Source: Ramlibacter agri (GTDB lineage: Bacteria; Pseudomonadota; Gammaproteobacteria; Burkholderiales; Burkholderiaceae_C). Taken from it: a stretch of 64,000 nucleotides of DNA. The notes beneath the pieces were generated by a model. That model saw only the letters and a program-made list of their open reading frames with translations. It made no database searches and had not been told where the DNA came from. A program made the position numbers and the translations under genes. This document shows, piece by piece, positions 17,097 to 55,034 of this stretch. The stretch's first letter is position 1. Each line of letters opens with the position of its first letter. The DNA is taken from contig NZ_JABBFX010000001.1 of NCBI RefSeq assembly GCF_012927085.1, positions 2,232,001 through 2,296,000 on the forward strand, given 5' to 3'.

Positions 17097-17245
17097 GGCA
17101 TGTCTCCTTCCGGCAGGCATCTTGCCGCCGGGGTATCCCGCAGACAATCGCCGCCTGTCGGTGCCGCAGCCGGGCCGTAGCTGCGACATGGGCCGTCGCA
17201 ACCTGGACCTACGTGATCTTGACCACGGAACAACGCTCGGCGACT

Positions 17246-19107: not shown

Positions 19108-19109
19108 GG

Positions 19110-38364: not shown

Positions 38365-38386
38365 TTCCCCGGGGGCCGGGAACCCT

Positions 38387-38398
38387 GGACCAAAGTCC
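38387..38398 (+). promoter_or_regulatory. Inverted-repeat operator candidate A (GGACCAAAGTCC)
   Basis: This dyad of the GGAC-N4-GTCC type lies 60 bp before the phospholipase D-like gene. It matches four other sites in this cluster. A second GTCCCC begins at 38415, exactly 20 bp after the right half-site, as it does at site C. Confidence 0.6.
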
Positions 38399-38458
38399 AA
38401 TGGGCGCACGAGCTGTCCCCTTGCATCGTCCAGCTCCACCGTCCATGAAAGGCCTCGC

Positions 38459-40003
38459 ATGCCCCGGGCTTCCCTTCTCATCGTGCTCTGGTTCTGCGCG
38501 ATGATCTGCGGCTGCTCCAGCCTGCCCGCCGTGCCCGAGAGGGCGCCGGAGCACGCGCTGGCGCAGAGTGGCGATACGCGCCTGGGCCGCGCGCTCGCCG
38601 GCGACGTGGCGGCGCACCCGGGCCGCACAGCCGTCCACCCGCTGCCCGGTGGCCTGGACGCTTTCGCGGCCAGGATGCTGCTGGCGCGGACCGCGGAGCG
38701 CAGCATCGACGCGCAGTACTACATCTGGCACGACGACATCACCGGCAGCCTGATGACGCAGGCGCTGTGGGAGGCCGCCGAACGCGGCGTGCGGGTGCGG
38801 CTGCTGCTGGACGACGCCAATACCGGCGGCCTGGACCCACTGCTCGCGATGCTGGATGGACACCCGAACATCGAGGTGCGCCTGTTCAACCCTTTCGCCA
38901 ACCGCAGCTGGCGGCTGGGCGACTTCGCGGTGGACTTCTCGCGCGTCAACCGCCGCATGCACAACAAGTCCTTTACCGTGGACAACCAGGTGAGCGTGGT
39001 CGGCGGGCGCAACATCGGCGACGAATACTTCGGCGCGGCGGAGTCGCTGGACTTCGCCGACCTCGACGTCGCCGTCGCGGGGGCCGTGGTGCGCGACGTG
39101 TCCTCCGAGTTCGACAACTACTGGAACAGCGCCTCGGCCTATCCCGTTGCCGGCATGCTGGCGCCCGTGTCCGACGTGGTGGCGCAGCAGCTGCGCGACG
39201 GCTGGGAAGAGGCCGCGCGCAAGCCCGAGGCCCAGCGCTACATGCAGGCGGTGCGCGACACCACGCTGGTGGCCGACGTGCTGTCCGGCCAGCTGCGCAT
39301 GGAGTGGGTGCCCGCGCGGCTGGTGTCCGACGATCCCGCCAAGGTGCTGAACCCGCCCGAGCGCCACGACCTGCACATGCTGCCGCGGCTGGAGGAGGCC
39401 CTGGGCCGGCCGCTGCGCGAGCTGGACCTGGTCTCGCCGTATTTCGTGCCGGCGCAGGAAGGCACGTCCGCGCTGCTGGCCATCGCGCAGCGCGGCGTGA
39501 AGGTGCGCGTGCTGACCAATTCGCTCGCCGCCACCGACGTGCTGCCTGTGTACGCAGGCTATGCGCGCTACCGCGAGCCGCTGCTGGGTGGCGGCGTACA
39601 GCTGTTCGAGCTGAAGCCCACCGCGGAAGTGCAGCGGCCCAAGACCCACGTGATCGGCAAGAGCGGTTCGCAGTCGGGCCTGCACGCCAAGACCTTTGCC
39701 GTCGACCGCGAGCGCATCTTCGTCGGCTCCTTCAACCTCGACCCGCGGTCGGCGCGCCTGAACACGGAGATGGGCGTCGTGCTCACCAGCACGAACCTGG
39801 CGGGACGGCTGTCCAGCCTGTTCGACGACAAGATCCGCGAAAGCGCCTACGAGGTGCGGCCGTCCCCGGAGGGCGCAGGGCTGGTCTGGGTGGACCGCAC
39901 GAGCGCCGGCGAAGCGGTGCATGCGTCCGAGCCGGGCAGCACCGCCTGGAAGCGCTTCGAAGCGGGCTTCCTGTCGCTGCTGCCGGTCGAGTGGATGTTG
40001 TAG
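38459..40003 (+). CDS. Phospholipase D-like (cardiolipin-synthase-type) lipoprotein
   Basis: This 514-residue protein has two HKD motifs: H168-x-K170-x4-D175 in 'RMHNKSFTVDNQ' followed by 'GGRN', and H409-x-K411-x4-D416 in 'GLHAKTFAVDRE' followed by 'GSFNLDPRS'. These form the two halves of a PLD active site acting on phosphodiesters. The leader 'LIVLWFCAMICGCSS' has a lipobox-like cysteine at 19, so the protein is probably anchored in a membrane facing the periplasm. It may remodel phospholipids or act as a phosphodiesterase. It carries operator candidate A upstream and is followed by a new unit with candidate B. Confidence 0.88.
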   Translation: MPRASLLIVLWFCAMICGCSSLPAVPERAPEHALAQSGDTRLGRALAGDVAAHPGRTAVHPLPGGLDAFAARMLLARTAERSIDAQYYIWHDDITGSLMTQALWEAAERGVRVRLLLDDANTGGLDPLLAMLDGHPNIEVRLFNPFANRSWRLGDFAVDFSRVNRRMHNKSFTVDNQVSVVGGRNIGDEYFGAAESLDFADLDVAVAGAVVRDVSSEFDNYWNSASAYPVAGMLAPVSDVVAQQLRDGWEEAARKPEAQRYMQAVRDTTLVADVLSGQLRMEWVPARLVSDDPAKVLNPPERHDLHMLPRLEEALGRPLRELDLVSPYFVPAQEGTSALLAIAQRGVKVRVLTNSLAATDVLPVYAGYARYREPLLGGGVQLFELKPTAEVQRPKTHVIGKSGSQSGLHAKTFAVDRERIFVGSFNLDPRSARLNTEMGVVLTSTNLAGRLSSLFDDKIRESAYEVRPSPEGAGLVWVDRTSAGEAVHASEPGSTAWKRFEAGFLSLLPVEWML

Positions 40004-40014
40004 CGCACTTCCTA

Positions 40015-40026
40015 GGACCAACGTCC
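40015..40026 (+). promoter_or_regulatory. Inverted-repeat operator candidate B (GGACCAACGTCC)
   Basis: This perfect GGAC-N4-GTCC dyad lies 68 bp before the outer-membrane channel gene and directly after the PLD gene stop. Its right flank GTCCAACTT (40023-40031) recurs upstream of the second channel gene at 45759-45767. Confidence 0.6.
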
Positions 40027-40094
40027 AACTTCCCGGGCGCGGCGGCGCGGCCGATCATCCACCGCCGCCGTTGCAAGGGCGGCAGGAAGCCTCC

Positions 40095-41057
40095 ATGGCC
40101 CGCCGCAAGCAACTCGAAGCCCTGTTCCTCCCGCTGCTCCTGCTGGCCGCTGTGCCGGCCGCGCGCGCCGACGAAGGCGGCGTCAGTTTCTGGTTGCCGG
40201 GCCAGTTCGGCAGCCTCGCCGCCGTGCCCGGCGCGCCGGGCTGGAGCCTGCCGATGGTGTACATCCACGAGAGCGTCAGCGGCGGCGGCGGCAAGGAATT
40301 CCCGCGCGGCGGCCGCATCGTGGCGGGCCTCGATTCGCGCGTGGACCTCGTGCTGCTCGTGCCCAGCTACACCTTTCCGCAGCCGGTGGCGGGCGGGCAG
40401 GCTGCACTGGCCATGGGCATAGGCGGCGGGCACATGCGCACGTCCATCGACGCGACGCTGACCGGGCCGCTCGGCAACTCGACGTCCGGCAGCCAGACCG
40501 ACACGCTGGATGGCGCGGCCGACCTCTATCCGCAGGGCTCGCTCAAGTGGAACAACGGCGTGCACAACACGATGGCCTACGTGATGGGCGGCGTGCCGGT
40601 GGGTTCGTATGCCAAGGGGCGGCTGTCCAACATCGGCACCAACCACTGGTCGCTCGATGGTGGCGGCGGCTACACCTACCTGGATCCCAAGGCCGGCAGG
40701 GAATTCTCGGCCGTCGCCGGCCTCACCTACAACTTCGAGAACCCCGACACCAACTACCGGAACGGCATCGACGGCCACGTCGACTGGGCGGCGTCGCAGT
40801 TCTTCACGAAGACCGTGCACGCCGGCCTGGTGGGTTACTTCTACCAGCAGCTCAGCGGCGACTCCGGCAGCGGCGCGACGCTGGGCGACTTCAAGTCGCG
40901 GGTGGCGGCCATCGGCCCGCAGGTGGGCTGGTTCTTCGACGGCGGCGGCAAGAAGTACTACGCCAACGCCAAGGCCTTCTGGGAATTCGGCGAGAAGAAC
41001 CGCGCGGCTGGCTGGAACCTCTGGCTGTCGCTGGTGGTTCCGCTCTCGTCGAAGTAG
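40095..41057 (+). CDS. Outer-membrane channel-like transporter (phenol-degradation MetA type)
   Basis: This 320-residue protein has a signal peptide (LEALFLPLLLLAAVPAARA). The rest is a run of amphipathic beta-strands with many glycines and aromatics ('GAPGWSLPMVYIHESVSG', 'GGGYTYLDPKAGREFSAVAGLTYNF') and a strand-like C terminus ending 'LWLSLVVPLSSK'. This matches the family of outer-membrane transporters associated with aromatic degradation (Phenol_MetA_deg). It probably lets a hydrophobic substrate through the outer membrane. The BASS symporter follows 9 bp downstream, so the pair could move one substrate across both membranes. Confidence 0.75.
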   Translation: MARRKQLEALFLPLLLLAAVPAARADEGGVSFWLPGQFGSLAAVPGAPGWSLPMVYIHESVSGGGGKEFPRGGRIVAGLDSRVDLVLLVPSYTFPQPVAGGQAALAMGIGGGHMRTSIDATLTGPLGNSTSGSQTDTLDGAADLYPQGSLKWNNGVHNTMAYVMGGVPVGSYAKGRLSNIGTNHWSLDGGGGYTYLDPKAGREFSAVAGLTYNFENPDTNYRNGIDGHVDWAASQFFTKTVHAGLVGYFYQQLSGDSGSGATLGDFKSRVAAIGPQVGWFFDGGGKKYYANAKAFWEFGEKNRAAGWNLWLSLVVPLSSK

Positions 41058-41066
41058 CAGGCCGCC

Positions 41067-41942
41067 ATGTCGATCACCGCATTGATCGGACTGGCCCTGC
41101 AGCTGAGCATGGCGCTGATCATCTGCAGCGTCGCCCTGGAGGCGAGCTTCGCCGACCTCATGTACCTGTGGCGCCGGCCCGGCCTGCTGGTGCGCTCGCT
41201 GGTCGCGATGCTGGTCGTGATGCCCCTGTTCGCGACGGCGATGCTGCTGAAGTTCGACCTGAACCACGCGGTCGTCACCGCGCTGCTGGCTTCGGCCATC
41301 TCGCCGGTGCCGCCCATCTTGCCCAACAAGCAGATCAAGGCCGGCGGCGAGGCGGCCTACGTCATCGGCCTGCTGACGACGACGGCGCTGGTGGCCATCG
41401 TCTACGTGCCGCTCAGCGCCGCGCTGCTGCAGCGCATGTTCCAGCGGCCGATCGACGTGGAAGTCGCCAGCATCGTCAAGATCGTCGCCACGTCCATGCT
41501 GCTGCCCGCGCTGGCCGGCATGGCGGTGCACGAGTGGGCGCCGAAGCTGGCGCGGCGCATCGAGAAGCCGCTGTCCCACTTCGCCACCGTGGTGCTGGTG
41601 CTCGCATGCATCCCGATCCTGATCAAGGAATGGCCGGCGATGGGACGGCTGGTCGGTGACTTCAGCGTCGTCGCGATGGTTTCCTTCGCGGTCGTCGGGC
41701 TGGCGGTAGGCCACCTGCTTGGCGGTCCCAGCGAGGGCGGCCGCACGGTGCTGGCGCTCGCCACGGCATCGCGGCATCCGGCGGTGGCCATCGCCATCAC
41801 GCACAACGCCATCGACAAGCCCGGCGTGATGGCGGCGGTGCTGTTGTCGCTGCTGGTGGGAACCATCGTTGCGATTCCGTACGTGCGCTGGCGCCAGCAC
41901 AGTTTCGAGGCTGCGGCGGTGGCCGGCAGCGGGCAGCACTGA
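41067..41942 (+). CDS. BASS-family sodium-dependent transporter
   Basis: This 291-residue polytopic membrane protein has about nine hydrophobic segments. Family-like blocks are 'AVVTALLASAISPVPPILPNKQ' (the crossover helix region) and 'GGRTVLALATASRHPAVAIAI', the equivalent of the conserved second crossover in bile acid:sodium symporters. The BASS/SLC10 family moves bile acids, pantoate, pyruvate and sulfated steroids. That range makes organosulfate import plausible in this sulfatase cluster (inference). It is co-transcribed with the channel gene upstream. Confidence 0.82.
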   Translation: MSITALIGLALQLSMALIICSVALEASFADLMYLWRRPGLLVRSLVAMLVVMPLFATAMLLKFDLNHAVVTALLASAISPVPPILPNKQIKAGGEAAYVIGLLTTTALVAIVYVPLSAALLQRMFQRPIDVEVASIVKIVATSMLLPALAGMAVHEWAPKLARRIEKPLSHFATVVLVLACIPILIKEWPAMGRLVGDFSVVAMVSFAVVGLAVGHLLGGPSEGGRTVLALATASRHPAVAIAITHNAIDKPGVMAAVLLSLLVGTIVAIPYVRWRQHSFEAAAVAGSGQH

Positions 41943-41959
41943 AGCGCCACGACCCGGTG

Positions 41960-41971
41960 AGACCAAGGTCC
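41960..41971 (+). promoter_or_regulatory. Inverted-repeat operator candidate C (AGACCAAGGTCC)
   Basis: The dyad lies 75 bp before the ClC-channel gene. It is followed by CATGG and TGCGCGAGCGG with GTCCCC starting at 41988, 20 bp after the right half-site. The downstream block matches site A in about 20 of 29 positions at identical spacing. Confidence 0.6.
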
Positions 41972-42046
41972 CATGGTTGCGCGAGCGGTCCCCCACCATC
42001 ATCGCCACGCGCCGCTGCACCGCACACCCATCCCACGAAATCGTCC

Positions 42047-43336
42047 ATGAGCAGTTCACGCAGCCACACCATGCTTGCCCTTGCGGCGCCGGCCCTGCTG
42101 GTGGGCGTCGGCTCCGCCCTCATCCTGCTGGTGGTCGTCATCGTCGCCAACCTGCTGCAGCGCGTGCTGTGGAACGTGCTGCCGCCGATGTTCGGCGCGA
42201 CGCCGGCGACGTGGTGGTGGATCCTCGGCATGCTCACCGTGTGCGGTCTCGTGGTCGGCCTCGTCGCGAAGTTCGTGCCGGGCCACGCCGGGCCCGACCC
42301 GGCGACGGTCTCCCTGTTCGGCCCGCCCATGCCTCTGGTCGTACTGCCTGGCCTGGCGCTCGTGCTGGTCCTCATGCTCGCGGGCGGCGTCAGCCTGGGG
42401 CCGGAAAACCCCATCGTCGCCATCGTCATCGGCCTCACGGTGGCCATCGGCACGCGCCTGATGCCGAAGGTGCCGGTGAAGGCCTGGGTCATCCTCGCCG
42501 TGGCCGGCATCATCGGCGCGATGTTCGGCACGCCGGTGGCGGCGGCCCTGCTGCTGTCGGAAATCTTCGGCGGCGGCGAGAACCAGCCGCCGTTGTGGGA
42601 CCGCATGTTCGCGCCGCTGCTGGCCGCCGGCGCCGGCGCCGTCACGATGACGCTGTTCGAGGCGCCGAACTTCGCGCTGCCGGTCGAGCCTTATGGCGCC
42701 GCCCGTGCGATCGATCTCCTGACCGGCACGGCGATCGTGCTCCTGTCCTGCGGCGTCGGCATGCTTGCCGTGTGGCTGTTCCTCTCGCTGCACCGGCTGT
42801 TCGTGGTGCTGCCGCAAGTGCTGGCGCTCACGCTCGGCGGCTTCCTGCTGGGCTTGCTGGGCATCGTCGGCGGGCCGCTCACGATGTTCAAGGGGCTGGG
42901 CGAGATGAAGACGATGGTGGAGCAGGTCGGCAATTTCGGCGTTTCCGCGCTCGCCATCTTCCTGGTGGTGCGCCTGCTGGCGACGGTGATCGCCGGCACC
43001 TGCGGCTTCCGCGGCGGCCGCATCTTTCCGATGGTGGCGGCCGGCGCGACCTTCGGCTTGCTGGTGCACTCGCTGATTCCCGCCATTCCGCTGTCGCTTT
43101 CGCTGGCCTGCGCGATCATGGGCTTCACCCTGGTGGCCACGCGCGACGGCTGGCTGAGCCTGTTCCTCGCCGCGGCCATGGTGCCGGGCCCGCACTTGCT
43201 GCCGCTGCTGTGCCTGATGGTGCTGCCGGCCTGGTTCGTGATGGCGGGGCGCGCGGAAATGATCGTCAAGACTCCGGCGCCGCGGCAAGGCGAGGCGGCC
43301 GGCCCCGCCTCGCCCGCGGCGAAGGCATCCGCATGA
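42047..43336 (+). CDS. ClC-family chloride/anion channel
   Basis: This 429-residue protein has about ten hydrophobic helices and the ClC filter-like motifs 'GGVSLGPENPIVAI' (GxEGP equivalent, about 118-131) and 'CGFRGGRIFPMVAAG' (GxFxP equivalent). This places it in the voltage-gated chloride channel/H+-antiporter superfamily, closest in style to the YfeO ion-channel group. It may balance the charge from anion uptake or release sulfate or chloride; the ion is not provable. The sulfatase at 43357 follows by 20 bp, with candidate site C upstream of the pair. Confidence 0.85.
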   Translation: MSSSRSHTMLALAAPALLVGVGSALILLVVVIVANLLQRVLWNVLPPMFGATPATWWWILGMLTVCGLVVGLVAKFVPGHAGPDPATVSLFGPPMPLVVLPGLALVLVLMLAGGVSLGPENPIVAIVIGLTVAIGTRLMPKVPVKAWVILAVAGIIGAMFGTPVAAALLLSEIFGGGENQPPLWDRMFAPLLAAGAGAVTMTLFEAPNFALPVEPYGAARAIDLLTGTAIVLLSCGVGMLAVWLFLSLHRLFVVLPQVLALTLGGFLLGLLGIVGGPLTMFKGLGEMKTMVEQVGNFGVSALAIFLVVRLLATVIAGTCGFRGGRIFPMVAAGATFGLLVHSLIPAIPLSLSLACAIMGFTLVATRDGWLSLFLAAAMVPGPHLLPLLCLMVLPAWFVMAGRAEMIVKTPAPRQGEAAGPASPAAKASA

Positions 43337-43356
43337 AGTTTCTCTGGAGGTGATAC

Positions 43357-44904
43357 ATGGCAAGCAAGGGATCGAAGCGCAAGCAACCCAACGTCCTCGT
43401 CATCTGGGGTGACGACATCGGCCAGTCCAACCTGAGCTGCTACACGCACGGGCTCATGGGCTACCGCACGCCCAACATCGACCGCATCGCCAAGGAAGGC
43501 ATGCTGTTCACCGACTCGTACGGCGAGCAGAGCTGCACCGCGGGGCGGTCGTCCTTCATCACGGGGCAGAGCGTCTACCGCACGGGCCTGTCCAAGGTGG
43601 GCATCCCGGCGGCGCCGATCGGCATGAACGACAAGATCGTGACGATCGCGGCCCTGCTGAAGGAGCAGGGCTACGCCACCGGCCAGTTCGGCAAGAACCA
43701 CCTGGGCGACCTGAACCACATGCTGCCCACCAACCACGGCTTCGACGAGTTCTACGGCAACCTGTACCACCTGAACGCCGAGGAAGAGCCGGAGATGGCC
43801 AACTACCCCAAGGACCCGAAGTTCCACGCGAAGTTCGGGCCGCGCGGCGTGATCCATTCCTGGGCGACCGACAAGGACGATCCGACGGAGATGCCGCGCT
43901 GGGGCAAGGTCGGCAAGCAGAAGATCGAGGACACGGGGCCGCTCACCAAGGAGCGCATGGAGACCTGCGACGACGACTTCGTCGCCCGGGCCAGCGAATT
44001 CATCCGGCAGCAGGAAAAGGCGGGCAAGCCGTGGTTCGTGTGGCTGAACACGACGCACATGCACATGTTCACGCACACCAAGAAGTCCAGCCTCGGCCAG
44101 GCCGGGCGCTGGCAGTCGCCCTACCACGACACCATGATCGACCACGACAAGAACGTGGGGCAGATGCTGGACCTGCTGGACGAACTGGGCATCGCCGAAG
44201 ACACCTTCGTGCAGTACTCCACCGACAACGGCCCGCACCGCAACTCCTGGCCCGATGGCGGCATGACGCCGTTCCGCAGCGAGAAGAACACCAACTGGGA
44301 AGGCGCCTTCCGCATCCCGATGCTGGTGCGCTGGCCCGGCAAGATAGCCGCCGGCTCGGTGGCCAACGGCATCGTGCAGCACCACGACTGGCTGCCGACC
44401 ATCCTGGCCCTGGCGGGCGCGCCGGACGTGCCGGAGAAGCTGAAGACGGGCTACCAGGCCATAGGCCGGACCTACAAGAACCACATCGACGGCTACAACC
44501 TGCTGCCCTACCTGACCGGCGAGCAGAAGGACTGCCCGCGCAACGTCTTCTTCTACATCAGCGACGACGGCGACATCCTCGGCATCCGCTACGACAACTG
44601 GAAGCTGGTGTTCATGGAGCAGCGCTGTCACGGCACCCTGCAGGTCTGGGCCGAGCCGTTCACGCGCCTGCGCCTGCCCAAGATCTACAACCTGCGGACG
44701 GACCCGTACGAGTTCGCGGACGTGACGTCCAACAGCTACTACGACTGGATGCTGCACAACGCCTACTTCATCTACGCGGCGCAGGCGGGCGCGGCCATGT
44801 TCGCGGAAACCTTCAAGGACTTCCCGCCGATCCAGCGGCCGAACACCTTCACCATCGACGACGCCATCGCGAAGATGGGCGAGGCCACGTCGGGCGCGAG
44901 CTGA
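43357..44904 (+). CDS. Type I sulfatase (formylglycine-dependent), compact form
   Basis: This 515-residue arylsulfatase-family enzyme has a C60-T-A-G-R64 active site (the CxAxR variant), metal-binding D19-D20 in 'VLVIWGDDIGQSNLS', 'GKNHLGD' and 'YSTDNGPHRNSWPDGG'. There is no signal peptide, so it is predicted cytoplasmic. The CTAGR core is a known alternative to CSPTR and is read by the same FGE. It is shorter than the other two sulfatases in the window and lacks their C-terminal beta-domain. It is preceded by a GGAGG ribosome-binding site and by the ClC-channel gene in the same unit. Confidence 0.93.
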   Translation: MASKGSKRKQPNVLVIWGDDIGQSNLSCYTHGLMGYRTPNIDRIAKEGMLFTDSYGEQSCTAGRSSFITGQSVYRTGLSKVGIPAAPIGMNDKIVTIAALLKEQGYATGQFGKNHLGDLNHMLPTNHGFDEFYGNLYHLNAEEEPEMANYPKDPKFHAKFGPRGVIHSWATDKDDPTEMPRWGKVGKQKIEDTGPLTKERMETCDDDFVARASEFIRQQEKAGKPWFVWLNTTHMHMFTHTKKSSLGQAGRWQSPYHDTMIDHDKNVGQMLDLLDELGIAEDTFVQYSTDNGPHRNSWPDGGMTPFRSEKNTNWEGAFRIPMLVRWPGKIAAGSVANGIVQHHDWLPTILALAGAPDVPEKLKTGYQAIGRTYKNHIDGYNLLPYLTGEQKDCPRNVFFYISDDGDILGIRYDNWKLVFMEQRCHGTLQVWAEPFTRLRLPKIYNLRTDPYEFADVTSNSYYDWMLHNAYFIYAAQAGAAMFAETFKDFPPIQRPNTFTIDDAIAKMGEATSGAS

Positions 44905-44910
44905 ACGCGG

Positions 44911-44933
44911 GGCCGGCCTCCGGGAGGCCGGCC
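44911..44933. terminator. Strong bidirectional hairpin between convergent genes
   Basis: A perfect 10-bp stem GGCCGGCCTC/GAGGCCGGCC with a CGG loop lies exactly between the sulfatase stop (44904) and the response-regulator stop (44943). No U-tract follows. The position supports a terminator or transcription barrier for both converging units. Confidence 0.7.
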
Positions 44934-44942
44934 ACTTCCACC

Positions 44943-45629
44943 CTATGGGTCGCCGGCGGCGGCAAGCGCGTGGCCCAGGCCGCTGCGTTCGAGGTTCCGC
45001 ACCAGGTGGGCCACCGCGCGAACTCCCATCTTCTGCAGGCCACGGGCGCGGTGCACCTTGACCGTCTTCTCCGTCGTCCCCAGCTCCCCCGCGATCTGCT
45101 TGTTCAGCTTGCCGCGGGCCACGAAGGCCAGGACCTGGCGCTCGCGCGGCGTCAATGACGCCAACTGCACGCGCATGCGCTCCTGGTCTTCATGCCGCAC
45201 GCGCAATGCAGCCTCGCGTGCGAGGGCCTTGTCGATGGCCGCGACCAGCGAGTCCTCATCGACCGGCTTCGTCAGGAAGTCGACCGCGCCGCTGCGGAAT
45301 GCGTTGGCGCAGGCCTGCACGTCCGCCTGGCCGGTGAGGAACACGATCGGCAGCGCGCTGCCCTGCGCGGCGAGCCGTTCCTGCAGCGCGAGGCCATCGA
45401 GGTCCGGCAGCGCGAGGTCCAGCAGGATGCATCCCGGCTGGCGCGCGTCGTGCGCGGCCAGGAAGTCGGCGGCCGTGGCGTGTGGCTGGACTTCGTAGCC
45501 GTGCGCCGCCAGCAGGCGGGCCAGCGCGGTGCGAACCTGGGTGTCGTCGTCGACGACGTGGACGCAAGCCGGCAGGCACGGCGTGCGCGACTGCCCTCCA
45601 GCCATGCCGGGCACATGATCGCTGTACAT
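44943..45629 (-). CDS. FixJ/NarL-type response regulator
   Basis: This 228-residue protein has a receiver domain (about 22-140) with acidic D27-D29, phosphoacceptor D71 in 'CILLDLALPDLDG', T99 and K121 in 'DFLTKPVDE'. A LuxR-type helix-turn-helix follows ('LTPRERQVLAFVARGKLNKQIAGELGTTEKTVKVHRARGLQKM', about 157-200). The order fits FixJ-family regulators. ATG 45629 has a strong AAGGGGAG site upstream. No histidine kinase gene is nearby, so it is an orphan. It is divergent from the second channel gene and sits in the centre of the sulfatase cluster, making it the prime candidate to bind the GGACC dyads. Confidence 0.92.
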   Translation of the reverse strand: MYSDHVPGMAGGQSRTPCLPACVHVVDDDTQVRTALARLLAAHGYEVQPHATAADFLAAHDARQPGCILLDLALPDLDGLALQERLAAQGSALPIVFLTGQADVQACANAFRSGAVDFLTKPVDEDSLVAAIDKALAREAALRVRHEDQERMRVQLASLTPRERQVLAFVARGKLNKQIAGELGTTEKTVKVHRARGLQKMGVRAVAHLVRNLERSGLGHALAAAGDP

Positions 45630-45756
45630 CTTCTCCCCTTTCCGGCGCCAATTGCCTCCCGGCAGCCAGACCGGAAAATCTTGTAGCGATCCGCGAAGCG
45701 TGTCGATATGCAGGTGATTGCATAGCGCGCGCGTCCGACCGCGCCGGGATGCCCCT

Positions 45757-45767
45757 TTGTCCAACTT
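45757..45767 (+). promoter_or_regulatory. Weak half-site F upstream of second channel gene
   Basis: TTGTCCAACTT here shares GTCCAACTT with the right half and flank of site B. The left half-site is degenerate. It lies 33 bp before the channel start and within the divergent gap with the response regulator, so it could serve either gene. Confidence 0.3.
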
Positions 45768-45800
45768 CTCCGCGACGCCCCGGCGGTGAATGATCCGGCG

Positions 45801-46580: not shown

Positions 46581-46596
46581 GCAAGGAGTTCGACAA

Positions 46597-48009: not shown

Positions 48010-48181
48010 GCACCCGCGCGGCGGCGCGGGCCTGGGCCTGGTTACCGGAGTCGGGCGATTCGCGCGCCGTCACGCGCTGCACGAAGCCTTCGATGGCAGC
48101 GCGGGCGCCACCCTCAGCCCATGAGCTGAGTTCCTGTGCCATGGCCCGCGATGTTGGTTGCGCATGCGAATGCTTTGCATT

Positions 48182-48193
48182 GGACCAAGGTGC
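48182..48193 (+). promoter_or_regulatory. Inverted-repeat operator candidate D (GGACCAAGGTGC)
   Basis: The dyad lies 55 bp before the FGE gene in the 239-bp gap after the DUF1254 gene. It is followed by CCATT and a GAGCGG, features shared with site C. The gap holds no other gene. Confidence 0.55.
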
Positions 48194-48248
48194 CATTCCT
48201 GCTGGGAGCGGGGCGTCGAACAATGCCTCGCGAACCCGTGGAGGACCG

Positions 48249-49223
48249 ATGAGTGCAGTCATGCAAGCGGCTGGCGCGACGCTGGCCGATGACACGATGG
48301 TGTGGATTCCCGGTGGCAGTTTCCGCATGGGCTCCGACCATCACTACGCGGAAGAAAAGCCCGCGCACTTCGTGCAGGTCGGCGGCTTCTGGATCGACCG
48401 CACGCCGGTGACCAACGCGCAATTCCGCGCCTTCGTCGAGGCGACGGGACACGTCACCTTCGCCGAGATCGCGCCCGATGCCAAGGACTATCCCGGCGCG
48501 CTGCCCGAGATGCTGCGGGCGGGCTCGCTGGTCTTCACGCCGCCGCAGCGGCCGGTGGACCTGCGCGATTTCTCGCAGTGGTGGCAGTTCTGCTTCGGCG
48601 CCGACTGGCTGCATCCGCTGGGCCCCGGCAGCGGCATCGAAGGGATCGACGACCATCCCGCGGTGCACCTGGCCTGGCGCGACGTCGAAGCCTATTGCGC
48701 CTGGGCCGGCAAGCAACTGGCCACCGAAGCCGAGTGGGAGTTCGCCGCGCGCGGCGGCCTGGACGGCGCCGAATACGCCTGGGGCGAGGAGTTCACGCCG
48801 GGTGGGCGCCACATGGCCAATACCTGGCAGGGCCGCTTCCCGCAGGAGAACCTGGGCGATGACGGCTTCGAGCGCACTTCCCCGGTGACGGCCTTCCCGC
48901 CCAATGGCTACGGCGTGCTGGACATGATCGGCAACGTCTGGGAGTGGACGCAGGACTGGTATTCCGCCGGCCACCCCGACAGCGCGCCGCGCCCTTGCTG
49001 CGCGCCGGTGAACCCGCGCGGACCCAGCGAGCAGGCCAGCTACGACCCCTGCCAGCTCGAAGTGCGCATCCCGCGCAAGGTGCTCAAGGGCGGCTCGCAC
49101 CTGTGCGCGCCCAACTACTGCCGCCGCTACCGGCCGGCGGCGCGGCACGCGCAGCCGGTGGACACCTCGACCAGCCACGTGGGCTTCCGCTGCGTGCGGC
49201 ACGGGCCGGGGCCGGCTGCATGA
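48249..49223 (+). CDS. Formylglycine-generating enzyme (sulfatase maturase)
   Basis: FGE oxidises the active-site cysteine of sulfatases to formylglycine, using O2 and copper. This 324-residue protein starts 'MVWIPGGSFRMGSD' (16-29) and has 'EAYCAWAGKQLATEAEWEFAA' and 'GYGVLDMIGNVWEWTQDWY'. The genuine FGE signature lies at the C terminus: 'GGSHLCAPNYC' with the copper-binding pair C286 and C291, then 'RYRPAARH' and 'DTSTSHVGFRC'. The pair separates true FGEs from other SUMF1/EgtB-fold proteins. There is no signal peptide, so it acts in the cytoplasm on the three sulfatases of this window. It heads a five-gene operon. Confidence 0.95.
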   Translation: MSAVMQAAGATLADDTMVWIPGGSFRMGSDHHYAEEKPAHFVQVGGFWIDRTPVTNAQFRAFVEATGHVTFAEIAPDAKDYPGALPEMLRAGSLVFTPPQRPVDLRDFSQWWQFCFGADWLHPLGPGSGIEGIDDHPAVHLAWRDVEAYCAWAGKQLATEAEWEFAARGGLDGAEYAWGEEFTPGGRHMANTWQGRFPQENLGDDGFERTSPVTAFPPNGYGVLDMIGNVWEWTQDWYSAGHPDSAPRPCCAPVNPRGPSEQASYDPCQLEVRIPRKVLKGGSHLCAPNYCRRYRPAARHAQPVDTSTSHVGFRCVRHGPGPAA

Positions 49224-49252
49224 GCCACGCTGTGCGGCCGGGAGCATGACCG

Positions 49253-49627
49253 ATGCGCGAATGGCTCGTCTACCTCACTGAACTGGCTGTCCTGGGCATC
49301 AACTTCATCGCGCTGGCGGTGATCGCCTACGCCACGCTGGAGGCGCTCGTGCGCGGCGTGCGCCTGGTGCGCCAGGCGGACGACCACTTGCGCGTTGACC
49401 TCTGGCTGCGCTATGGGCGCTGGCTGGTGGGCGGCCTCACCTTCCAGCTCGCCGCCGACATCGTCGAAACGGCGATCACCGACAACTGGGAATCCATCGG
49501 GCGGCTGGCGGCCATCGCGGCGATCCGCACGTTCGTCAACTACTCCCTCGAGCGCGACATCGAGGGCCTGCGGGAACGGCGCGAGCGGCGGGCGCGTGCA
49601 GCGTCGACCGGAGCCGTTCATGGCTGA
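49253..49627 (+). CDS. DUF1622 small membrane protein
   Basis: This 124-residue protein has three predicted membrane segments: 'LTELAVLGINFIALAVIAYAT', 'WLVGGLTFQLAADIVETAIT' and 'IGRLAAIAAIRTFVNYSL'. It ends with a highly basic tail. The helix containing 'RYGRWLVGGLTFQLAADIVET' is the DUF1622 pattern. The role is unknown. The last 8 bp overlap the acid phosphatase gene, so the two are translationally linked. Confidence 0.85.
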   Translation: MREWLVYLTELAVLGINFIALAVIAYATLEALVRGVRLVRQADDHLRVDLWLRYGRWLVGGLTFQLAADIVETAITDNWESIGRLAAIAAIRTFVNYSLERDIEGLRERRERRARAASTGAVHG

Positions 49628-50471
49628 GACGGCTCTCGTCCGCTGCGTGCGGCGTCTCGCTACGTGCGCCGCGCTCGCGGCTGCCGCCTGCGGCTGCGCC
49701 ACCGCTGTCGCTCCGGCCGGGCCGCAGCCTGTGCCCGAGATGCGGCCCGGCCTGCTCACCGGTTACCTGGGCCGCGAGCTGCCGGACAGCCTGCTGCTGT
49801 TGCCGGCGCCGCCCGCCGACGGCACGCCGGCCTTCGCGAACGACGAAGCGGTGCACACGGCGGCACAGCGGCTGCGCGGCACGCCGCGCTATGCGCAGGC
49901 GGCGCAGGATGCGGAGCTCGCGTTTCCCCACGCGCCCACCGCCTTCGCCTGCGCGCTGGGCGTGCCGATCACGCAGCAGCGGTCGCCCTATCTCTACCAG
50001 ATGCTGCAGCGCGTCTTCACCGACGCGGCTCTCGCGACCTACGCCGCCAAGGACCACTACCAGCGCGTGCGGCCCTTCGTGCGTCACCAGGAGGGCACCT
50101 GCCTGCCCGCGGACGAGGCGATGCTGCGCGGCGACGGCTCCTACCCCTCGGGGCACAGTTCGATCGGCTGGGCCTGGGCGCTGGTGCTGACCGAAGTTGC
50201 GCCCGAGCGCGCGGATGCGCTGCTCGCCCGCGGCCGCGCGTTCGGCGAAAGCCGCCTCGTGTGCAACGCGCACTGGCAGAGCGACGTGATCGAGGGCCGC
50301 AACGCCGCCGCCGGCGCGGTCGCCAAGCTGCACGGCAAACCGGAATTCAACTCGGACCTCGCGGCCGCGGCCGGCGAGGTCGCGGCCTTGCGGCGCGCCG
50401 GCGCAGCCCCCAACGCGGACTGCCAAGCCGAAGCAGCGGCGCTGCGCGTGCGCATCGACGGCGTGTTGTGA
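49620..50471 (+). CDS. Class A non-specific acid phosphatase (PAP2 family), lipoprotein-like
   Basis: This 283-residue protein has the PAP2 phosphatase motifs in order: K-x6-RP in 'KDHYQRVRPF', PSGH in 'GDGSYPSGHSS', and S-R-x5-H-x3-D in 'ESRLVCNAHWQSD'. The leader 'RLATCAALAAAACGCAT' contains a lipobox-like cysteine, so it is likely anchored in the periplasm. These enzymes release phosphate from a broad range of esters. It overlaps the DUF1622 gene. The DUF1254 gene follows 17 bp later. Confidence 0.9.
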   Translation: MAETALVRCVRRLATCAALAAAACGCATAVAPAGPQPVPEMRPGLLTGYLGRELPDSLLLLPAPPADGTPAFANDEAVHTAAQRLRGTPRYAQAAQDAELAFPHAPTAFACALGVPITQQRSPYLYQMLQRVFTDAALATYAAKDHYQRVRPFVRHQEGTCLPADEAMLRGDGSYPSGHSSIGWAWALVLTEVAPERADALLARGRAFGESRLVCNAHWQSDVIEGRNAAAGAVAKLHGKPEFNSDLAAAAGEVAALRRAGAAPNADCQAEAAALRVRIDGVL

Positions 50472-50488
50472 ACGTGGAGGTGTCCCGT

Positions 50489-51970
50489 ATGAATCCCGCC
50501 GACCTGGCCCGTGCCTTCAACCCCGCGCATGCGGGGCTCGCCGACGCCGCCGGCGCGCCGGCACAGCTGGCGAACGAGAAGTACGTCGAGTCGCTCGCGC
50601 GCATCGTCTTCTACTGGGGCTATCCGGCGGCCGATACCTTCGGCCGCACGAGCGGCTGGCACCTGATGAAAAGCCCGGGCGCCACCATGGGCCTGTTCCC
50701 CGGCGCGCCGAAGAACCACACGGGCTACGTCGACGACTACCTGCCCGCCGCGCAGCGCAAGGTGGTGACGCCCAACAACGACACCATCTACGGAGCCTGC
50801 TTCGCCGACCTGGCGGCGGACGCCGTCGTGGTGCAGACGCCCGCCGACGCGCCGCCGGGGCACTACTGGACGATCCAGGTCGTCGACGTGTTCACCACGG
50901 TGACGCACCAGCTCGGCTCCGCCTCGCGCACGCCGGGCGGCAAGTTCCTGCTGGTCGGCCCGGACTGGCAGGGGCAGGCGCCCGCGGGCTTCCTGGGCGT
51001 GCTGCGTTCGCCGACCCACGTGGCCGGCATCTTCTGCCGCAGCTTCGCGGCCCGCACGCCGGAGGCGAAGGCGCAGGCGCGCGCCGTGCTGAACCAGATC
51101 GGCGCCGTGCCGCTGAAGGAAGACCGGCCGGGGCCGCTGCGCTTCGACTGCGAGGCCAGCGCGCGCAACAAGGTCTATCCGCCCGGGCTGACGGCGGAAA
51201 TGCTGGCGGCCGACCCCGACCTGCTGCGCCACCGCCCGGTGAACGTGAGGACGTTCTGGGACGACCTGCAGAAGGCGCTGGACGCCAACCCGATCGTCAG
51301 CGCGGAAGACGCGCCGATGGCGGCGCAGGCGCGGGTGCTGCTGGCGCTGCGCGCCGCAGACCCGGCCTGGCGCGCGCTGGTCGATCGCGTCACGCTTGCC
51401 GCCGATGCCGAACTGCACGAGAGCGCGAAGTACCACCAGGCCGGCGTCACGGCCGGCAACGGCTGGCAGCGGCAGGAGAACGGCGGCGCCTGGGGCAGCG
51501 ACTGGTTCGGGCGGGCGCAGGCGGCGGTCATCTACATCTACGTCAACGACTTCCACGAGGCGGTCTACTTCATCCGCGGCACCGATGCGCAAGGCGAACT
51601 GCTGCAGGGCCGCTACCGCTACACGGTGACCTTCCCCAAGGGCGCGCTGCCGCCGGTGGACCGCGAGCGCGGCGGCTTCTGGTCGCTGACGATGTACGAC
51701 CAGGACTATTTCATGCTGGCCGACAGCCCCAATGGCCGCCACAACATCGGCACGGTGAACCTGGACGCGAACGAATTGAAGTTCGCGGCCGACGGCTCGC
51801 TGACGCTGCATCTTTCGCACGCCGAGCCGGCCGAGGCGCAGGCGCGCGCCAACTGGCTGCCGGCGCCGGCGGGCCAGTTCGCGTTGCTGGTGCGCGCCTA
51901 CGTGCCGGCGGCGGCCGTCCTCGATGGCAGCTACCGGCTGCCCGATGTCCACAAGAAAGCAGGAACCTGA
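50489..51970 (+). CDS. DUF1254/DUF1214 domain protein, second copy
   Basis: This 493-residue protein has DUF1254 blocks 'ARIVFYWGYPAADTFGR', 'VVTPNNDTIYGACFADLAADAVVVQTP' and 'YWTIQVVDVFTTVTHQLGS', then a DUF1214 block 'YRYTVTFPKGALPPVDRERGGFWSLTMYDQDYF'. It is homologous to the product at 46597 but with a different C-terminal half. ATG 50489 is chosen because GGAGG lies at 50476-50480. Like the first copy it lacks a signal peptide. It is in the FGE operon. The function of the family is unresolved. Confidence 0.88.
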   Translation: MNPADLARAFNPAHAGLADAAGAPAQLANEKYVESLARIVFYWGYPAADTFGRTSGWHLMKSPGATMGLFPGAPKNHTGYVDDYLPAAQRKVVTPNNDTIYGACFADLAADAVVVQTPADAPPGHYWTIQVVDVFTTVTHQLGSASRTPGGKFLLVGPDWQGQAPAGFLGVLRSPTHVAGIFCRSFAARTPEAKAQARAVLNQIGAVPLKEDRPGPLRFDCEASARNKVYPPGLTAEMLAADPDLLRHRPVNVRTFWDDLQKALDANPIVSAEDAPMAAQARVLLALRAADPAWRALVDRVTLAADAELHESAKYHQAGVTAGNGWQRQENGGAWGSDWFGRAQAAVIYIYVNDFHEAVYFIRGTDAQGELLQGRYRYTVTFPKGALPPVDRERGGFWSLTMYDQDYFMLADSPNGRHNIGTVNLDANELKFAADGSLTLHLSHAEPAEAQARANWLPAPAGQFALLVRAYVPAAAVLDGSYRLPDVHKKAGT

Positions 51971-51971
51971 G

Positions 51972-52616
51972 ATGGGCGACGCCTCCGACGACGACCTTGA
52001 ACGCCCCGAGCGCGTGCCGGAAACGGCGCCGCCGCCGGTGCCCGACATCGAGCCGCCGCCGACCGAGCCGTCGACGGTGCTGTCGCTGCACCGCACGCGG
52101 CTGTCGACGCACCGCACCTCGCTGTCGGAGCATCGCACCGCGCTGTCCGAACACCGCACGGATCTTTCCACCTTCCGCACGACGCTGTCGCGGCGGCGCA
52201 CCGAGATGTCGATGCGGCGCACCGGCATGTCCTTCCAGCGCACGCGGCTGAGCGCGGACCGCACGCTGATGTCGGTGATCCGCACATCGCTGTCCCTTAT
52301 CAGCTTCGGCTTCACCATCTACCAGATCTTCGAGAAGCTGTCCGCGAACGAGGTCATCAAGGGCGTGCACGCCAGCCGCAATTTCGGCCTGGCGCTGGTG
52401 TCGCTGGGCATCGTGATGCTGGCGATCGGCATCATCTACCACGTGCACTTCATGGTCGGCCTGCGCGACATCCGCAAGGAGATGCGCGAGCAGGGCTTGA
52501 TCCACGGCGACAGCGGCTTCCCGGCTTCCTTCACGCTGGTGACGGCGCTGATCCTGCTGGCGATCGGCGCCTTCGCGATCGTCAGCATGGTGTTCCACAT
52601 CGGGCCGTTCGGCTGA
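51972..52616 (+). CDS. DUF202-type membrane protein with heptad-amplified N terminus
   Basis: This 214-residue protein begins with a Pro-rich acidic segment (1-36) and then ten uninterrupted heptads (37-106) of the form [LM]-S-x-x-R-T-x. These run directly into 'LSLISFGFTIYQIFEKL', the first membrane helix of a DUF202/YidH-like module. Two more membrane helices follow ('FGLALVSLGIVMLAIGIIYHV' in style, and 'FTLVTALILLAIGAFAIVSMVF'). A normal DUF202 protein has only one or two RTxLS-type units before the first helix. The last gene of the FGE operon. Function is unknown; the long amphipathic or coiled-coil extension is the unusual part. Confidence 0.8.
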   Translation: MGDASDDDLERPERVPETAPPPVPDIEPPPTEPSTVLSLHRTRLSTHRTSLSEHRTALSEHRTDLSTFRTTLSRRRTEMSMRRTGMSFQRTRLSADRTLMSVIRTSLSLISFGFTIYQIFEKLSANEVIKGVHASRNFGLALVSLGIVMLAIGIIYHVHFMVGLRDIRKEMREQGLIHGDSGFPASFTLVTALILLAIGAFAIVSMVFHIGPFG

Positions 52617-52621
52617 ACCTG

Positions 52622-54916
52622 CTAGCGCGCCTCGACGGCGCCCAGTTCGATGGTCACGTGGTCGATCTTGCCCGTAAAGGCAAAGGGCAGCTCGTACGTG
52701 AAATCGATCGGCGAGCCGATGTCCATGCCGACGTCCAGGCCCTCGCCCAGCGAGATCTGGATCGGGATGGTCTTCTCCAGTCGGCCGCCGGCGAGCTTCT
52801 GGCCATTGGCGCTGAGCGTGAGCGCGCCGCCCTTGCCCATGCCGCCGCCGTCGTACCTGAAATCCACCACCAGCGTCACCTTGCCGGCCGGCAAGGGCTC
52901 CGGCGCGGCGAAGGTGAAGCGCTCCACCGACAGAAAGTTGTAGACGAAGGTCGGCACGCCGTCGCGGAAGTACAGGCCGTAGCCGCCTTCCAGCCCGCCG
53001 TGCGTCACTACCATCCCGTTGGACTTCGCGTCGGGCAGTTCCACTTCCGCCGTGATCGTCCAGGACTTGTTGCACATGGGCGGCGAGGCCGCGTCCGGGA
53101 CCGCGATGGTGCCGGGGTAGTAGGTGAGCTTGTTGCGGCCGCGAACCAGGCTGGGGCGGCCCATGGCCTCGGCGTTCATGCGGATCGTGGCGCGCCAGTC
53201 CAGCGGCAGCACGTTGTACTTGGAGGCTTCCACCCACCACATGTCCTGCAGCTGGCGCAGCTTGTCCGGGTGCTGCGCGGCCAGGTCGTTCGCCTGCGAG
53301 AAATCCTTCTCGACGTCGTACAGCTCCCAGGTCGCCTTGTCGGGGTCCCATTCGGCGCGGTTGGGGTCCCAGGGCACGAAGGACGGGCTGGAGGCCATCC
53401 AGCCGTCGTGGTACAGGCCGCGGTTGCAGCCCAGCTCGAAGTACTGCGTCTTGCGCGGCGCGGGGGCCTTGGCGTCCTCGAAGCTAGCGGCGAAGCTGGC
53501 GCCTTCGATGGGCTTCTGCACGATGCCGTTGAGGACGCTCGGCGCCGTGATGCCGCAGACTTCGTAGAGCGTGGGCACCAGGTCGATGGTGTGGACGAAC
53601 TGGCCGCGCAGCGCGCCACGGTCGCGGATGCGCTGGGGCCAGGAAATGATCATCGGGTTGCGCGTGCCGCCGAAGTGGCTGGCCACCTGCTTGGTCCACT
53701 GGAAGGGCGTGTTCATCGCGTGCGCCCAGGCCGAGGGGAAGTGGTTGAAGTGCTTCGGCCCGCCCAGTTCGTCGATGGCCTGGATGTTGTCCTGCCACTT
53801 CTCCGGGAAGCCGTTGAAGAACATGTTCTCGCACAGCGACCCTTCCAGGCCGCCTTCGGCGCTGGAGCCGTTGTCGCCGGCGATGTAGACGATCAGCGTG
53901 TTGTCGGCGTTGGGCAGCGCCTTCACCGCGTCGACGACGCGGCCCATCTGTTCGTCCGCGTGCGCGCCGTAGGCCGCGAACACTTCCATCATGCGCGCGT
54001 ACAGCCGCTGCTGGTCGGCGTTGAGCGAATCCCAGGCCGGCAGGCCACGCGAACGCGTGGTGAGCTGGGTGTCCGCCGGCACCACGCCCAGCTTCTTCTG
54101 CCGCTCCAGCGTCTGCTCGCGGTAGCGGTCCCAGCCGCCGTCGAACCGGCCCTTGAAGCGGGCGATCCAGTCCTGCGGCGTGTGGTGCGGCGCATGCGTC
54201 GCGCCCGGCGCGACGTACAGGAAGAAGGGCTTGTCGGGCGCGATGGAGGTGGCCTGCCGCACCCAGGCGATGGCGTGGTCGGCGAGGTCGGTGGTGAGGT
54301 GGTAGTCCGGGTCGGTCGACGCCGCCACCAGGTCGCGGTTGCGGTAGAGGATCGGGTTCCAGTGGTTCATGTCGCCACCGTTGAACCCGTAGAAGTAGTC
54401 GAAGCCCAGGCCGTTGGCCCAGCGGTCGAAGGGGCCGGCCGCGCTGGTTTCCCAGGTGGGCGTGTTGTGGTTCTTGCCGATCCAGGCGGTCATGTAGCCG
54501 TTCTGGCGCAGCACCTCGCCGATGGTGCCGCAGCTCTTGGGCAGGATGCAGGTGTAGCCGTCGTAGCCGGTCGCCAGCTCGGTGATGCCGGCGAAGGAGG
54601 TCGAGTGGTGGTTGCGGCCGGTGATGAGCGCCGCCCGCGTCGGGCTGCACAAGGCCGTGGTGTGGAAGCGGTTGTAGCGCAGGCCTTCGGCGGCGAGGCG
54701 GTCCATGGTGGGCGAGGGCACGCCGCCGCCGAAGGTGCTGAACTGGCCGAAGCCGACGTCGTCCAGCAGCACCAGCAGGATGTTGGGCGCGCCTTGCGGC
54801 GCCTTCACCGGTTGCGGAAACTGCGCCGGGGCGGAATCGAGGTAGGTGCGGCCGACCTCGCCGGGAAAGTGGAAGTCGGGGCGGGGAAGAATGTCGGGCG
54901 TGCCTTGCTGGCTCAT
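52622..54916 (-). CDS. Type I sulfatase (formylglycine-dependent), large form
   Basis: This 764-residue arylsulfatase has C90-S-P-T-R in 'TTALCSPTRAALITGR', metal-binding D52-D53 in 'LVLLDDVGFGQFS', 'GKNHNTPTWETS', and 'YIAGDNGSSAEGG'. A C-terminal jelly-roll-like region (about 610-764) has 'NKSWTITAEVELPDAKSNGMVVTHGG' and resembles the tail of the sulfatase at 36130. No signal peptide is seen. It is convergent with the DUF202 gene (5 bp between stops) and divergent from a flavoprotein gene. Operator candidate E lies 58 bp upstream. Confidence 0.93.
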   Translation of the reverse strand: MSQQGTPDILPRPDFHFPGEVGRTYLDSAPAQFPQPVKAPQGAPNILLVLLDDVGFGQFSTFGGGVPSPTMDRLAAEGLRYNRFHTTALCSPTRAALITGRNHHSTSFAGITELATGYDGYTCILPKSCGTIGEVLRQNGYMTAWIGKNHNTPTWETSAAGPFDRWANGLGFDYFYGFNGGDMNHWNPILYRNRDLVAASTDPDYHLTTDLADHAIAWVRQATSIAPDKPFFLYVAPGATHAPHHTPQDWIARFKGRFDGGWDRYREQTLERQKKLGVVPADTQLTTRSRGLPAWDSLNADQQRLYARMMEVFAAYGAHADEQMGRVVDAVKALPNADNTLIVYIAGDNGSSAEGGLEGSLCENMFFNGFPEKWQDNIQAIDELGGPKHFNHFPSAWAHAMNTPFQWTKQVASHFGGTRNPMIISWPQRIRDRGALRGQFVHTIDLVPTLYEVCGITAPSVLNGIVQKPIEGASFAASFEDAKAPAPRKTQYFELGCNRGLYHDGWMASSPSFVPWDPNRAEWDPDKATWELYDVEKDFSQANDLAAQHPDKLRQLQDMWWVEASKYNVLPLDWRATIRMNAEAMGRPSLVRGRNKLTYYPGTIAVPDAASPPMCNKSWTITAEVELPDAKSNGMVVTHGGLEGGYGLYFRDGVPTFVYNFLSVERFTFAAPEPLPAGKVTLVVDFRYDGGGMGKGGALTLSANGQKLAGGRLEKTIPIQISLGEGLDVGMDIGSPIDFTYELPFAFTGKIDHVTIELGAVEAR

Positions 54917-54974
54917 GCGTTGCTCCTGCCAAGTCGAGTGCGCAGTGTGGGCAGGGGGGCCGGCCGCAGCTATG

Positions 54975-54986
54975 GGACCTTCGTGC
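54975..54986 (-). promoter_or_regulatory. Inverted-repeat operator candidate E (GCACGAAGGTCC)
   Basis: Read on the minus strand the site is followed by CATAG and CTGCGGCCGG with a C-run, matching site C in AAGGTCCCAT and in the downstream TGCG and CCCC. It lies 58 bp before the sulfatase start and 48 bp before the divergent flavoprotein start. Confidence 0.55.
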
Positions 54987-55034
54987 CAAGCGGTCCGCCG
55001 CTTGGCGGCCCGCGTGCGGGACAATCGCGTCCCC

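What the first reader, a model, noticed from the sequence alone, without database searches (positions are those of the whole stretch)
38387..54986. Shared GGACC-NN-GGTCC inverted repeat before five transcription units of the sulfatase cluster
Seen directly: GGACCAAAGTCC (38387), GGACCAACGTCC (40015), AGACCAAGGTCC (41960), GGACCAAGGTGC (48182) and, on the minus strand, GCACGAAGGTCC (54975-54986). All are intergenic and lie 55-75 bp before the first start codon of a unit: PLD lipoprotein; channel plus BASS; ClC plus sulfatase; FGE operon; sulfatase. I did not notice this motif ahead of other genes in the window. An orphan FixJ-type regulator sits inside the cluster. I infer a previously undescribed local regulon for organosulfate handling.
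Basis: partly seen in the sequence, partly recalled or inferred. Interest (0 to 1): 0.82.

Follow-up and report, generated by a model that had tools for sequence, protein, structure and literature searches.

The report
Shared promoter switch for sulfatase genes
Five gene groups of a bacterial sulfatase cluster carry the same DNA switch in their promoters, and that switch belongs to a much larger gene-control network, for which I found no description, probably run by a small family of signal-responsive regulators, one of them encoded inside the cluster.

Summary
The five sites are the five best matches in the 64 kb window to a matrix built only from other species (25.8-14.1; next best 5.7, coding). 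The full element is a 16-bp palindrome, TKGGACCWWGGTCCMA. Of 134 sites examined in seven genomes of the genus, none is coding. Sites sit at a fixed distance from a -10-like A...T pair: 43 of 78 towards the gene, 8 of 78 away from it. In the window 4 of 5 sites have it exactly and one is shifted by 1 bp. So the palindrome is probably centred near -43.5, where an activator would replace the -35 box.

The regulon is not local. The window's genome has 38 sites (control 12), also before phospholipase, porin, channel, lipoprotein, kinase and regulator genes. It follows StyR/FixJ-type regulators: 7 of 14 genomes with one are motif-rich, 0 of 46 without. The cluster's own regulator groups with that clade. 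Orthologous sulfatase operons in three relatives are rearranged, yet keep a site. Closest known: StyR/TodT box and CrbR's ACTU motif. Unproven: binding, signal, and which paralogue acts here.

The parts
38385..38400 (+). site 1 (CTGGACCAAAGTCCAA), before the PLD lipoprotein gene
38424..38429 (+). predicted -10 element CATCGT
   Evidence: A at +40 and T at +44 from the site start
38459..40003 (+). PLD-like lipoprotein
   Evidence: PF13091, PF00614
40013..40028 (+). site 2 (TAGGACCAACGTCCAA), before channel + BASS
   Evidence: matrix score 14.1, intergenic
40053..40058 (+). predicted -10 element GATCAT (1 bp further than usual)
   Evidence: A/T pair at +41/+45
40095..41057 (+). outer-membrane channel-like protein
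   Evidence: PF13557 Phenol_MetA_deg
41067..41942 (+). bile-acid:sodium-symporter-family (BASS) transporter
   Evidence: PF01758
41958..41973 (+). site 3 (TGAGACCAAGGTCCCA), before ClC + sulfatase
   Evidence: matrix score 23.0, intergenic
41997..42002 (+). predicted -10 element CATCAT
   Evidence: A +40, T +44
42047..43336 (+). ClC-type chloride channel
   Evidence: PF00654
43357..44904 (+). sulfatase B
   Evidence: PF00884
44943..45629 (-). orphan StyR/FixJ-type response regulator, candidate regulator of the sites
   Evidence: Response_reg + GerE; best solved relative 1yio, E 7.5e-47; clade
45749..45764 (+). degenerate possible sixth site before a porin-like gene; weak
   Evidence: score 2.5-3.7, within chance; the A/T pair at +41/+45 would leave almost no 5' leader
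48180..48195 (+). site 4 (TTGGACCAAGGTGCCA), before the FGE operon
   Evidence: matrix score 25.8, intergenic
48219..48224 (+). predicted -10 element AACAAT
   Evidence: A +40, T +44
48249..49223 (+). formylglycine-generating enzyme, first gene of the FGE unit (then DUF1622, DUF1254/DUF1214, DUF202-like)
   Evidence: PF03781, E 7.7e-82; neighbours
52622..54916 (-). sulfatase C
   Evidence: PF00884
54944..54949 (-). predicted -10 element CACACT
   Evidence: A +40, T +44
54973..54988 (-). site 5 (TGGCACGAAGGTCCCA), before sulfatase C
   Evidence: matrix score 17.2, intergenic

Best explanation
The five repeats are operators of activator-dependent sigma-70-type promoters. A phosphorylated dimer of a StyR/TodT-like FixJ-family response regulator is proposed to bind the 16-bp palindrome TKGGACC(W)(W)GGTCCMA, centred near -43.5 from the predicted start of transcription, and to recruit RNA polymerase in place of a -35 box (class II activation). 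The same element forms a genome-wide regulon in a subset of species of this genus; the sulfatase cluster is one branch. The regulator encoded in the cluster is a paralogue of the regulator of a core two-component locus elsewhere in the genome (MASE1 histidine kinase, two FixJ-type regulators, a lone receiver), and it or that regulator acts on the five sites. Shown by computation: element, placement, spacing to the -10 pair, conservation, co-occurrence with the regulator clade. Inferred: binding, phosphorylation, activation rather than repression, identity of the acting paralogue, the signal.
For: Other-species matrix ranks exactly the five sites on top. 0 of 134 examined sites coding, where the same gene finder% of 440 kb coding. 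-10 pair at a fixed offset: 43 of 78 gene-facing sides against 8 of 78 opposite sides, other offsets 0-9; window 4 of 5 exact, 1 shifted by 1 bp, chance of at least 4 of 5 about 1.5e-6. Motif-rich genomes: 7 of 14 with a regulator hit at E<=1e-42, 0 of 46 without, Fisher 8.9e-6. Window regulator in a supported 11-row set (95/86) whose other rows come from motif-rich genomes or from G248 and G034, which have a site near their regulators. Sites lie beside regulator/receiver genes in G000, G097, G206, G211, G213, G254. Sulfatase-B and BASS relatives (at the cut-offs used) occur in only 4 of 60 genomes of the genus, all motif-rich, Fisher 7.2e-5; 3 of 3 orthologous operons of each keep a site despite rearrangement.
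Against: No binding, expression or start-site data. The motif-rich genomes may be one clade, so the Fisher values overstate independence (not tested). Half of the genomes with a regulator hit (7 of 14) are not motif-rich. G214 is motif-rich, but its best regulator falls outside the clade. Two remoter sulfatase-B homologues (65% in G254, 51% in G214) have no good site (0.6, 8.3). Of 8 gene-facing sides at the orthologous clusters only 5 have the exact -10 pair (read). Outside the genus most sulfatase clusters lack the box: in the loci L032-L140 there are 10 places scoring >=10 against 8 for the reversed matrix, and the Burkholderiales MAG L106, with kinase, regulator, receiver and cluster together, has none >=4. 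The pattern used to collect training sites was designed after seeing the window sites.
Confidence: 0.78

Rival explanations
1. The palindrome is real, but the orphan regulator in the cluster does not act on it; the core-locus regulator (G000:C1:1157346-1157969, 57% identical) or another paralogue runs all sites, and the local gene does something else or has decayed.
For: Four clade or near-clade regulators in the genome; the core locus has kinase, regulators, receiver and four sites in about 10 kb; the local regulator has no kinase gene beside it in the window and no strong site at its own promoter.
Against: Regulators of this type sit beside sulfatase genes in other genomes too: L036/L151, L106, L125, L069, L074, with a box nearby in L036, L069, L074 and L125. 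The window regulator keeps the recognition-helix run TVKVHRAR of the clade.
Confidence: 0.4
2. A repressor or roadblock: the same protein bound at -43.5 shuts the promoters off.
For: Position alone does not exclude repression; no expression data.
Against: No -35 consensus is visible and the spacing to -10 is strict, which is expected of activator-dependent promoters; CrbR's ACTU motif at -52 to -36 is required for activation (PMC5715377, section 16).
Confidence: 0.12
3. An unrelated DNA-binding protein family uses the palindrome, and the FixJ-type genes are merely frequent neighbours.
For: No direct test.
Against: Genus-wide co-occurrence, sites at regulator genes themselves, AC-N4-GT core shared with the box of the StyR/TodT group (PMC5874301 passage).
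Confidence: 0.1
4. Chance matches or a repeat without regulatory role (mobile repeat, RNA hairpin).
For: The short consensus alone is not enriched in the window.
Against: 0 of 134 coding, fixed -10 spacing, conserved positions; conserved bases stop at the palindrome edges and the -10; the site would lie upstream of the transcript, and a 2-base loop cannot close a hairpin.
Confidence: 0.02

Closest known systems
StyR/TodT/TmoT/TutB group of FixJ-family response regulators and their box ATAAAC-N4-GTTTAT (PMC5874301, passages read)
   Same: REC + LuxR/GerE architecture; best solved relative of the window regulator is 1yio/1zn2, listed as 'response regulatory protein', which I recall as StyR (E 7.5e-47); palindrome with AC-N4-GT core; StyR Lys175 and Val176 are kept.
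   Different: Outer bases TKGG/CCMA instead of ATAA/TTAT; the place of StyR His179 is Ala; targets are not aromatic degradation genes; the regulon is far larger.
ACTU motif of CrbR/ErdR in Pseudomonas and Vibrio (PMC5715377, section 16 and passages read)
   Same: Imperfect inverted repeat with a similar core (e.g. GACCAAGGTC in listed sites) bound by a LuxR-family response regulator; located -52 to -36, nearly the same as the -51 to -36 inferred here.
   Different: Outer bases differ; acetate-use genes, small regulon; the SLC5/STAC kinase CrbS was not sought here; I did not compare CrbR by sequence.
FixJ (solved structure 5xso/5xt2)
   Same: Same family, second-best full-length match (E 9.9e-35).
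   Different: Lower similarity; nitrogen-fixation and microaerobic targets (recalled).

Membership tests
FixJ/NarL-type response regulators (window regulator) | Receiver domain plus C-terminal LuxR-type HTH | tested here: met
   Response_reg 6.2e-27 and GerE 1.1e-17
StyR/TodT-like group | Closest relatives of known structure are StyR-like | tested here: met
   1yio best hit, 163 bits, next 123 bits; name StyR recalled
StyR/TodT-like group | Recognition-helix residues Lys175, Val176, His179 | tested here: not met
   Lys and Val kept, His179 position is Ala: 2 of 3
StyR/TodT-like group | Box ATAAAC-N4-GTTTAT | tested here: not met
   Only AC-N4-GT is shared; consensus here TKGGAC-N4-GTCCMA
CrbS/CrbR acetate system | ACTU motif before acs/actP and SLC5/STAC kinase | not tested
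   acs/actP and SLC5 kinases were not searched for; among the target genes given to Pfam none is acs or actP
Class II activator promoters | Operator at about -41.5 with fixed spacing to -10 | tested here: met
   A/T pair at +40/+44 in 43 of 78 gene-facing sides, 8 of 78 opposite sides; transcription start itself is inferred
Class II activator promoters | Binding and activation by the regulator | not testable with these tools
   needs EMSA, footprint, reporter

The most novel reading that the evidence does not exclude
A lineage-specific global regulon in which three to four paralogous StyR-like regulators per genome share one operator sequence, with a sulfatase/organic-anion uptake island plugged into it together with its own private copy of the regulator. 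The island and its operators have been rearranged repeatedly while the operator was regained or kept at each new operon head, so that envelope remodelling, ion channels and sulfate-ester scavenging are switched together by one signal read by MASE1-type kinases.
Probability: 0.35. Interest if true: 0.66.

Novelty: new member of a known kind. Interest (0 to 1): 0.52.

Why it matters
It turns a hand-spotted repeat into a testable regulon with a defined operator, predicted promoters and named candidate regulators, in bacteria for which I found no description of this control. It gives a handle on what induces a widespread sulfatase cluster, and an example of how StyR-like regulators can move from narrow catabolic control to a genome-wide regulon with a changed operator (GGAC-N4-GTCC, with the His179 position changed to Ala).

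Tried and rejected
Only the full palindrome with at most 2 mismatches separates. CrbR identity (first idea, from memory) was weakened: the similarity of the motif is real but the closest solved relative is 1yio. A search for the box in sulfatase clusters of other phyla gave little. The degenerate place at 45749-45764 is not claimed. Paper searches for a prior description (PMC open-licence library only) found none of this motif or regulon; others returned no paper, and of the others I looked inside five only (PMC5715377, PMC8402216, PMC9927547, PMC5874301, PMC9100948; passages, plus one whole section of PMC5715377).

Slips: the fragment given for FGE was out of frame (0 families), repaired. In one search two queries were badly framed (an in-frame stop shown as X in DUF1254b), repaired. 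The tree lacked the window protein through my own filter and was rebuilt, whose bootstrap had not fully settled. A threshold of E<=1e-49 for the regulator (7 of 10 against 0 of 50) was chosen after seeing the data; the report uses the search's own E<=1e-42 cut-off. Dropped rows: of 109 sites with at most 1 mismatch in the seven genomes 100 were examined; of 202 with at most 2 mismatches 134 were; most unexamined ones are in G206, G097 and the 2-mismatch class. In the -10 test, sites with starts on both sides or on neither were left out (82 of 134 used).

Full report
The observation. They precede the PLD gene, the channel-BASS pair, the ClC-sulfatase pair, the FGE unit and a sulfatase on the minus strand (domains), 55-75 bp before the start codons.

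The real element. A look at FixJ-type neighbours in other genomes suggested a longer palindrome, and a scan with TKGGACCWWGGTCCMA separated cleanly. In the window's genome 18 places match with at most 1 mismatch against 2 for the control and 38 against 12 with at most 2. In a sample of 200 genomes of the family (own genome included), 22 other genomes hold 29 places in all, mostly single (sum), with controls scattered likewise. In 369 genomes of the class (own included) exact matches occur only in the own genome (4) and in G596 (2); the control had 2 places in 2 genomes.

Placement. I took stretches around sites from seven genomes of the genus and called genes with a simple codon-usage gene finder trained on the window. 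Of 134 sites none is coding, although that finder% of 440 kb of the same regions coding. A start codon follows within 100 bp at 97 and within 120 bp at 108 of 134; 5 have none within 250 bp.

Promoter geometry. When 82 sites with a start on one side only are aligned in gene direction, apart from the palindrome the two strongest positions are A at +40 and T at +44 from the site start, the second and last base of a -10 hexamer. Outside the window 43 of 78 gene-facing sides have both, 58 of 78 allowing 1 bp; facing away 8 and 13 of 78. Other offsets on the gene-facing side count 0 to 9. The 8 on the far side exceed the neighbouring offsets too, perhaps because some sites serve two genes. Of the five window sites four have the exact pair and the fifth has it 1 bp further on. 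With a start about 7 bp after the -10 hexamer (general knowledge) the palindrome spans about -51 to -36. This is nearly the place of the ACTU motif of CrbR, -52 to -36, which is needed for activation (PMC5715377, section 16).

The regulon. Targets are broad: HlyD-type fusion protein, YSC84-like (one below the Pfam cut-off), DUF2189, CusF-like, DUF308, glycosidase, carbonic anhydrase, META/MliC lipoprotein; MscS, solute-binding protein, Omp85-like, PLD, patatin, MASE1 kinase, kinase, AI-2E family, DcaP porin (patatin and MASE1 kinase are genes of the core locus, not all with a site directly in front); DUF3141, PPK2, SBF, DUF748, MscS, aquaporin, DUF3300; sulfatases, channel, oxidase subunit, DUF1254, CoA transferase. 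Thirty protein groups recur in at least two of the seven genomes within 240 bp of a site. An envelope- or stress-type regulon is my reading; no signal is known.

The regulator. The window regulator is a receiver-GerE protein; its closest solved relative is 1yio, E 7.5e-47. Among 60 genomes of the genus (own included) seven are motif-rich (38, 36, 36, 31, 26, 18 and 17 places; controls 12, 8, 5, 6, 9, 4, 5) and the other 53 have at most 7. All seven have a regulator hit at E<=1e-42, which 14 of 60 have: 7 of 14 against 0 of 46. The genomes are related, so this is support and not proof. In a tree of 34 regulators the window protein falls in an 11-row set (95/86) with regulators of motif-rich genomes and of G248 and G034; G248 and G034 have a site near their regulators. 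The motif-rich label needs 6 changes on that tree, and G214's regulator lies elsewhere, so the fit is not perfect. In the core locus of the own genome (L141) sites stand before a FixJ-type regulator, a kinase and lipoproteins; in G097, G206, G211, G213 and G254 a site stands between or beside the FixJ-type regulator and a lone receiver gene.

Specificity. Passages of PMC5874301 give ATAAAC-N4-GTTTAT for the StyR/TodT group and name Lys175, Val176 and His179 of StyR. The alignment to 1yio shows the first two kept and Ala at the third. The shared AC-N4-GT core with changed outer bases fits this, but is inference.

Orthologues. Sulfatase B (E<=1e-150) and BASS (E<=1e-40) are found in only 4 of 60 genomes of the genus, the same four, all motif-rich (Fisher 7.2e-5). 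In G214 a site heads an operon BASS ... sulfatase B, FGE, DUF1622, DUF1254, DUF202-like; in G211 one heads BASS, sulfatase B, FGE; in G254 one precedes sulfatase B and another precedes DUF202-like, BASS, FGE, DUF1622. So 3 of 3 orthologous sulfatase-B operons and 3 of 3 BASS operons have a site; two remoter sulfatase-B homologues (65%, 51%) do not. Of eight gene-facing sides at these places five show the exact -10 pair, read.

Beyond the genus. A FixJ-type regulator with a lone receiver lies in or beside sulfatase genes in Steroidobacter and Peristeroidobacter (L074, L069), an uncultured bacterium (L125), a Burkholderiales MAG (L106) and G107 (L151) (domains for L074, L106, L125, L151). Good boxes are present in L074 (26.3) and L125 (26.8), weaker ones in L069 (14.4) and L036 (10.1), none in L106. 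Over all those loci places scoring >=10 are no commoner than for the reversed matrix (10 against 8), so only the few high-scoring cases count.

Verdict. A genuine promoter element and regulon, filed as a new member of a known kind (FixJ/StyR-type two-component control with a changed box), not a purely local organosulfate regulon.

Noticed in passing
L141 (G000:C1:1140001-1160000), 9295-19482: Core two-component locus: lipoprotein, kinase, patatin with Omp85-type end, YSC84, FixJ-type regulator, MASE1 kinase, second FixJ-type regulator and a lone receiver, with four sites of the motif.
   Followed up: partly
window 43357-44904 and loci L061-L140: Sulfatase B is 80-85% identical in records named Flavihumibacter (Bacteroidota), Hyphomicrobium, Sphingomonas and Microvirga, and about 68% in two Methanolobus MAGs, which suggests recent horizontal spread or mislabelled contigs.
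   Followed up: no
L088: A record titled Bacillus subtilis SK7B5 carries a sulfatase cluster laid out as in Stenotrophomonas loci; probably contamination of that assembly.
   Followed up: no
G596 (L350, L351): A genome of another family in the class has two exact palindromes, intergenic, one beside a gene like those next to FixJ-type regulators in L152 and L159.
   Followed up: partly
window 45749-45764: Degenerate copy of the element between the regulator and a porin-like gene; the related gene of G254 (74% identical) has a good site nearby (L366, 27.3).
   Followed up: partly
L332, L342, L291 and others: DUF3141, DUF3300, DUF748 and a roughly 665-aa protein without Pfam match recur as targets of the motif in several genomes; their functions are unknown.
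   Followed up: no
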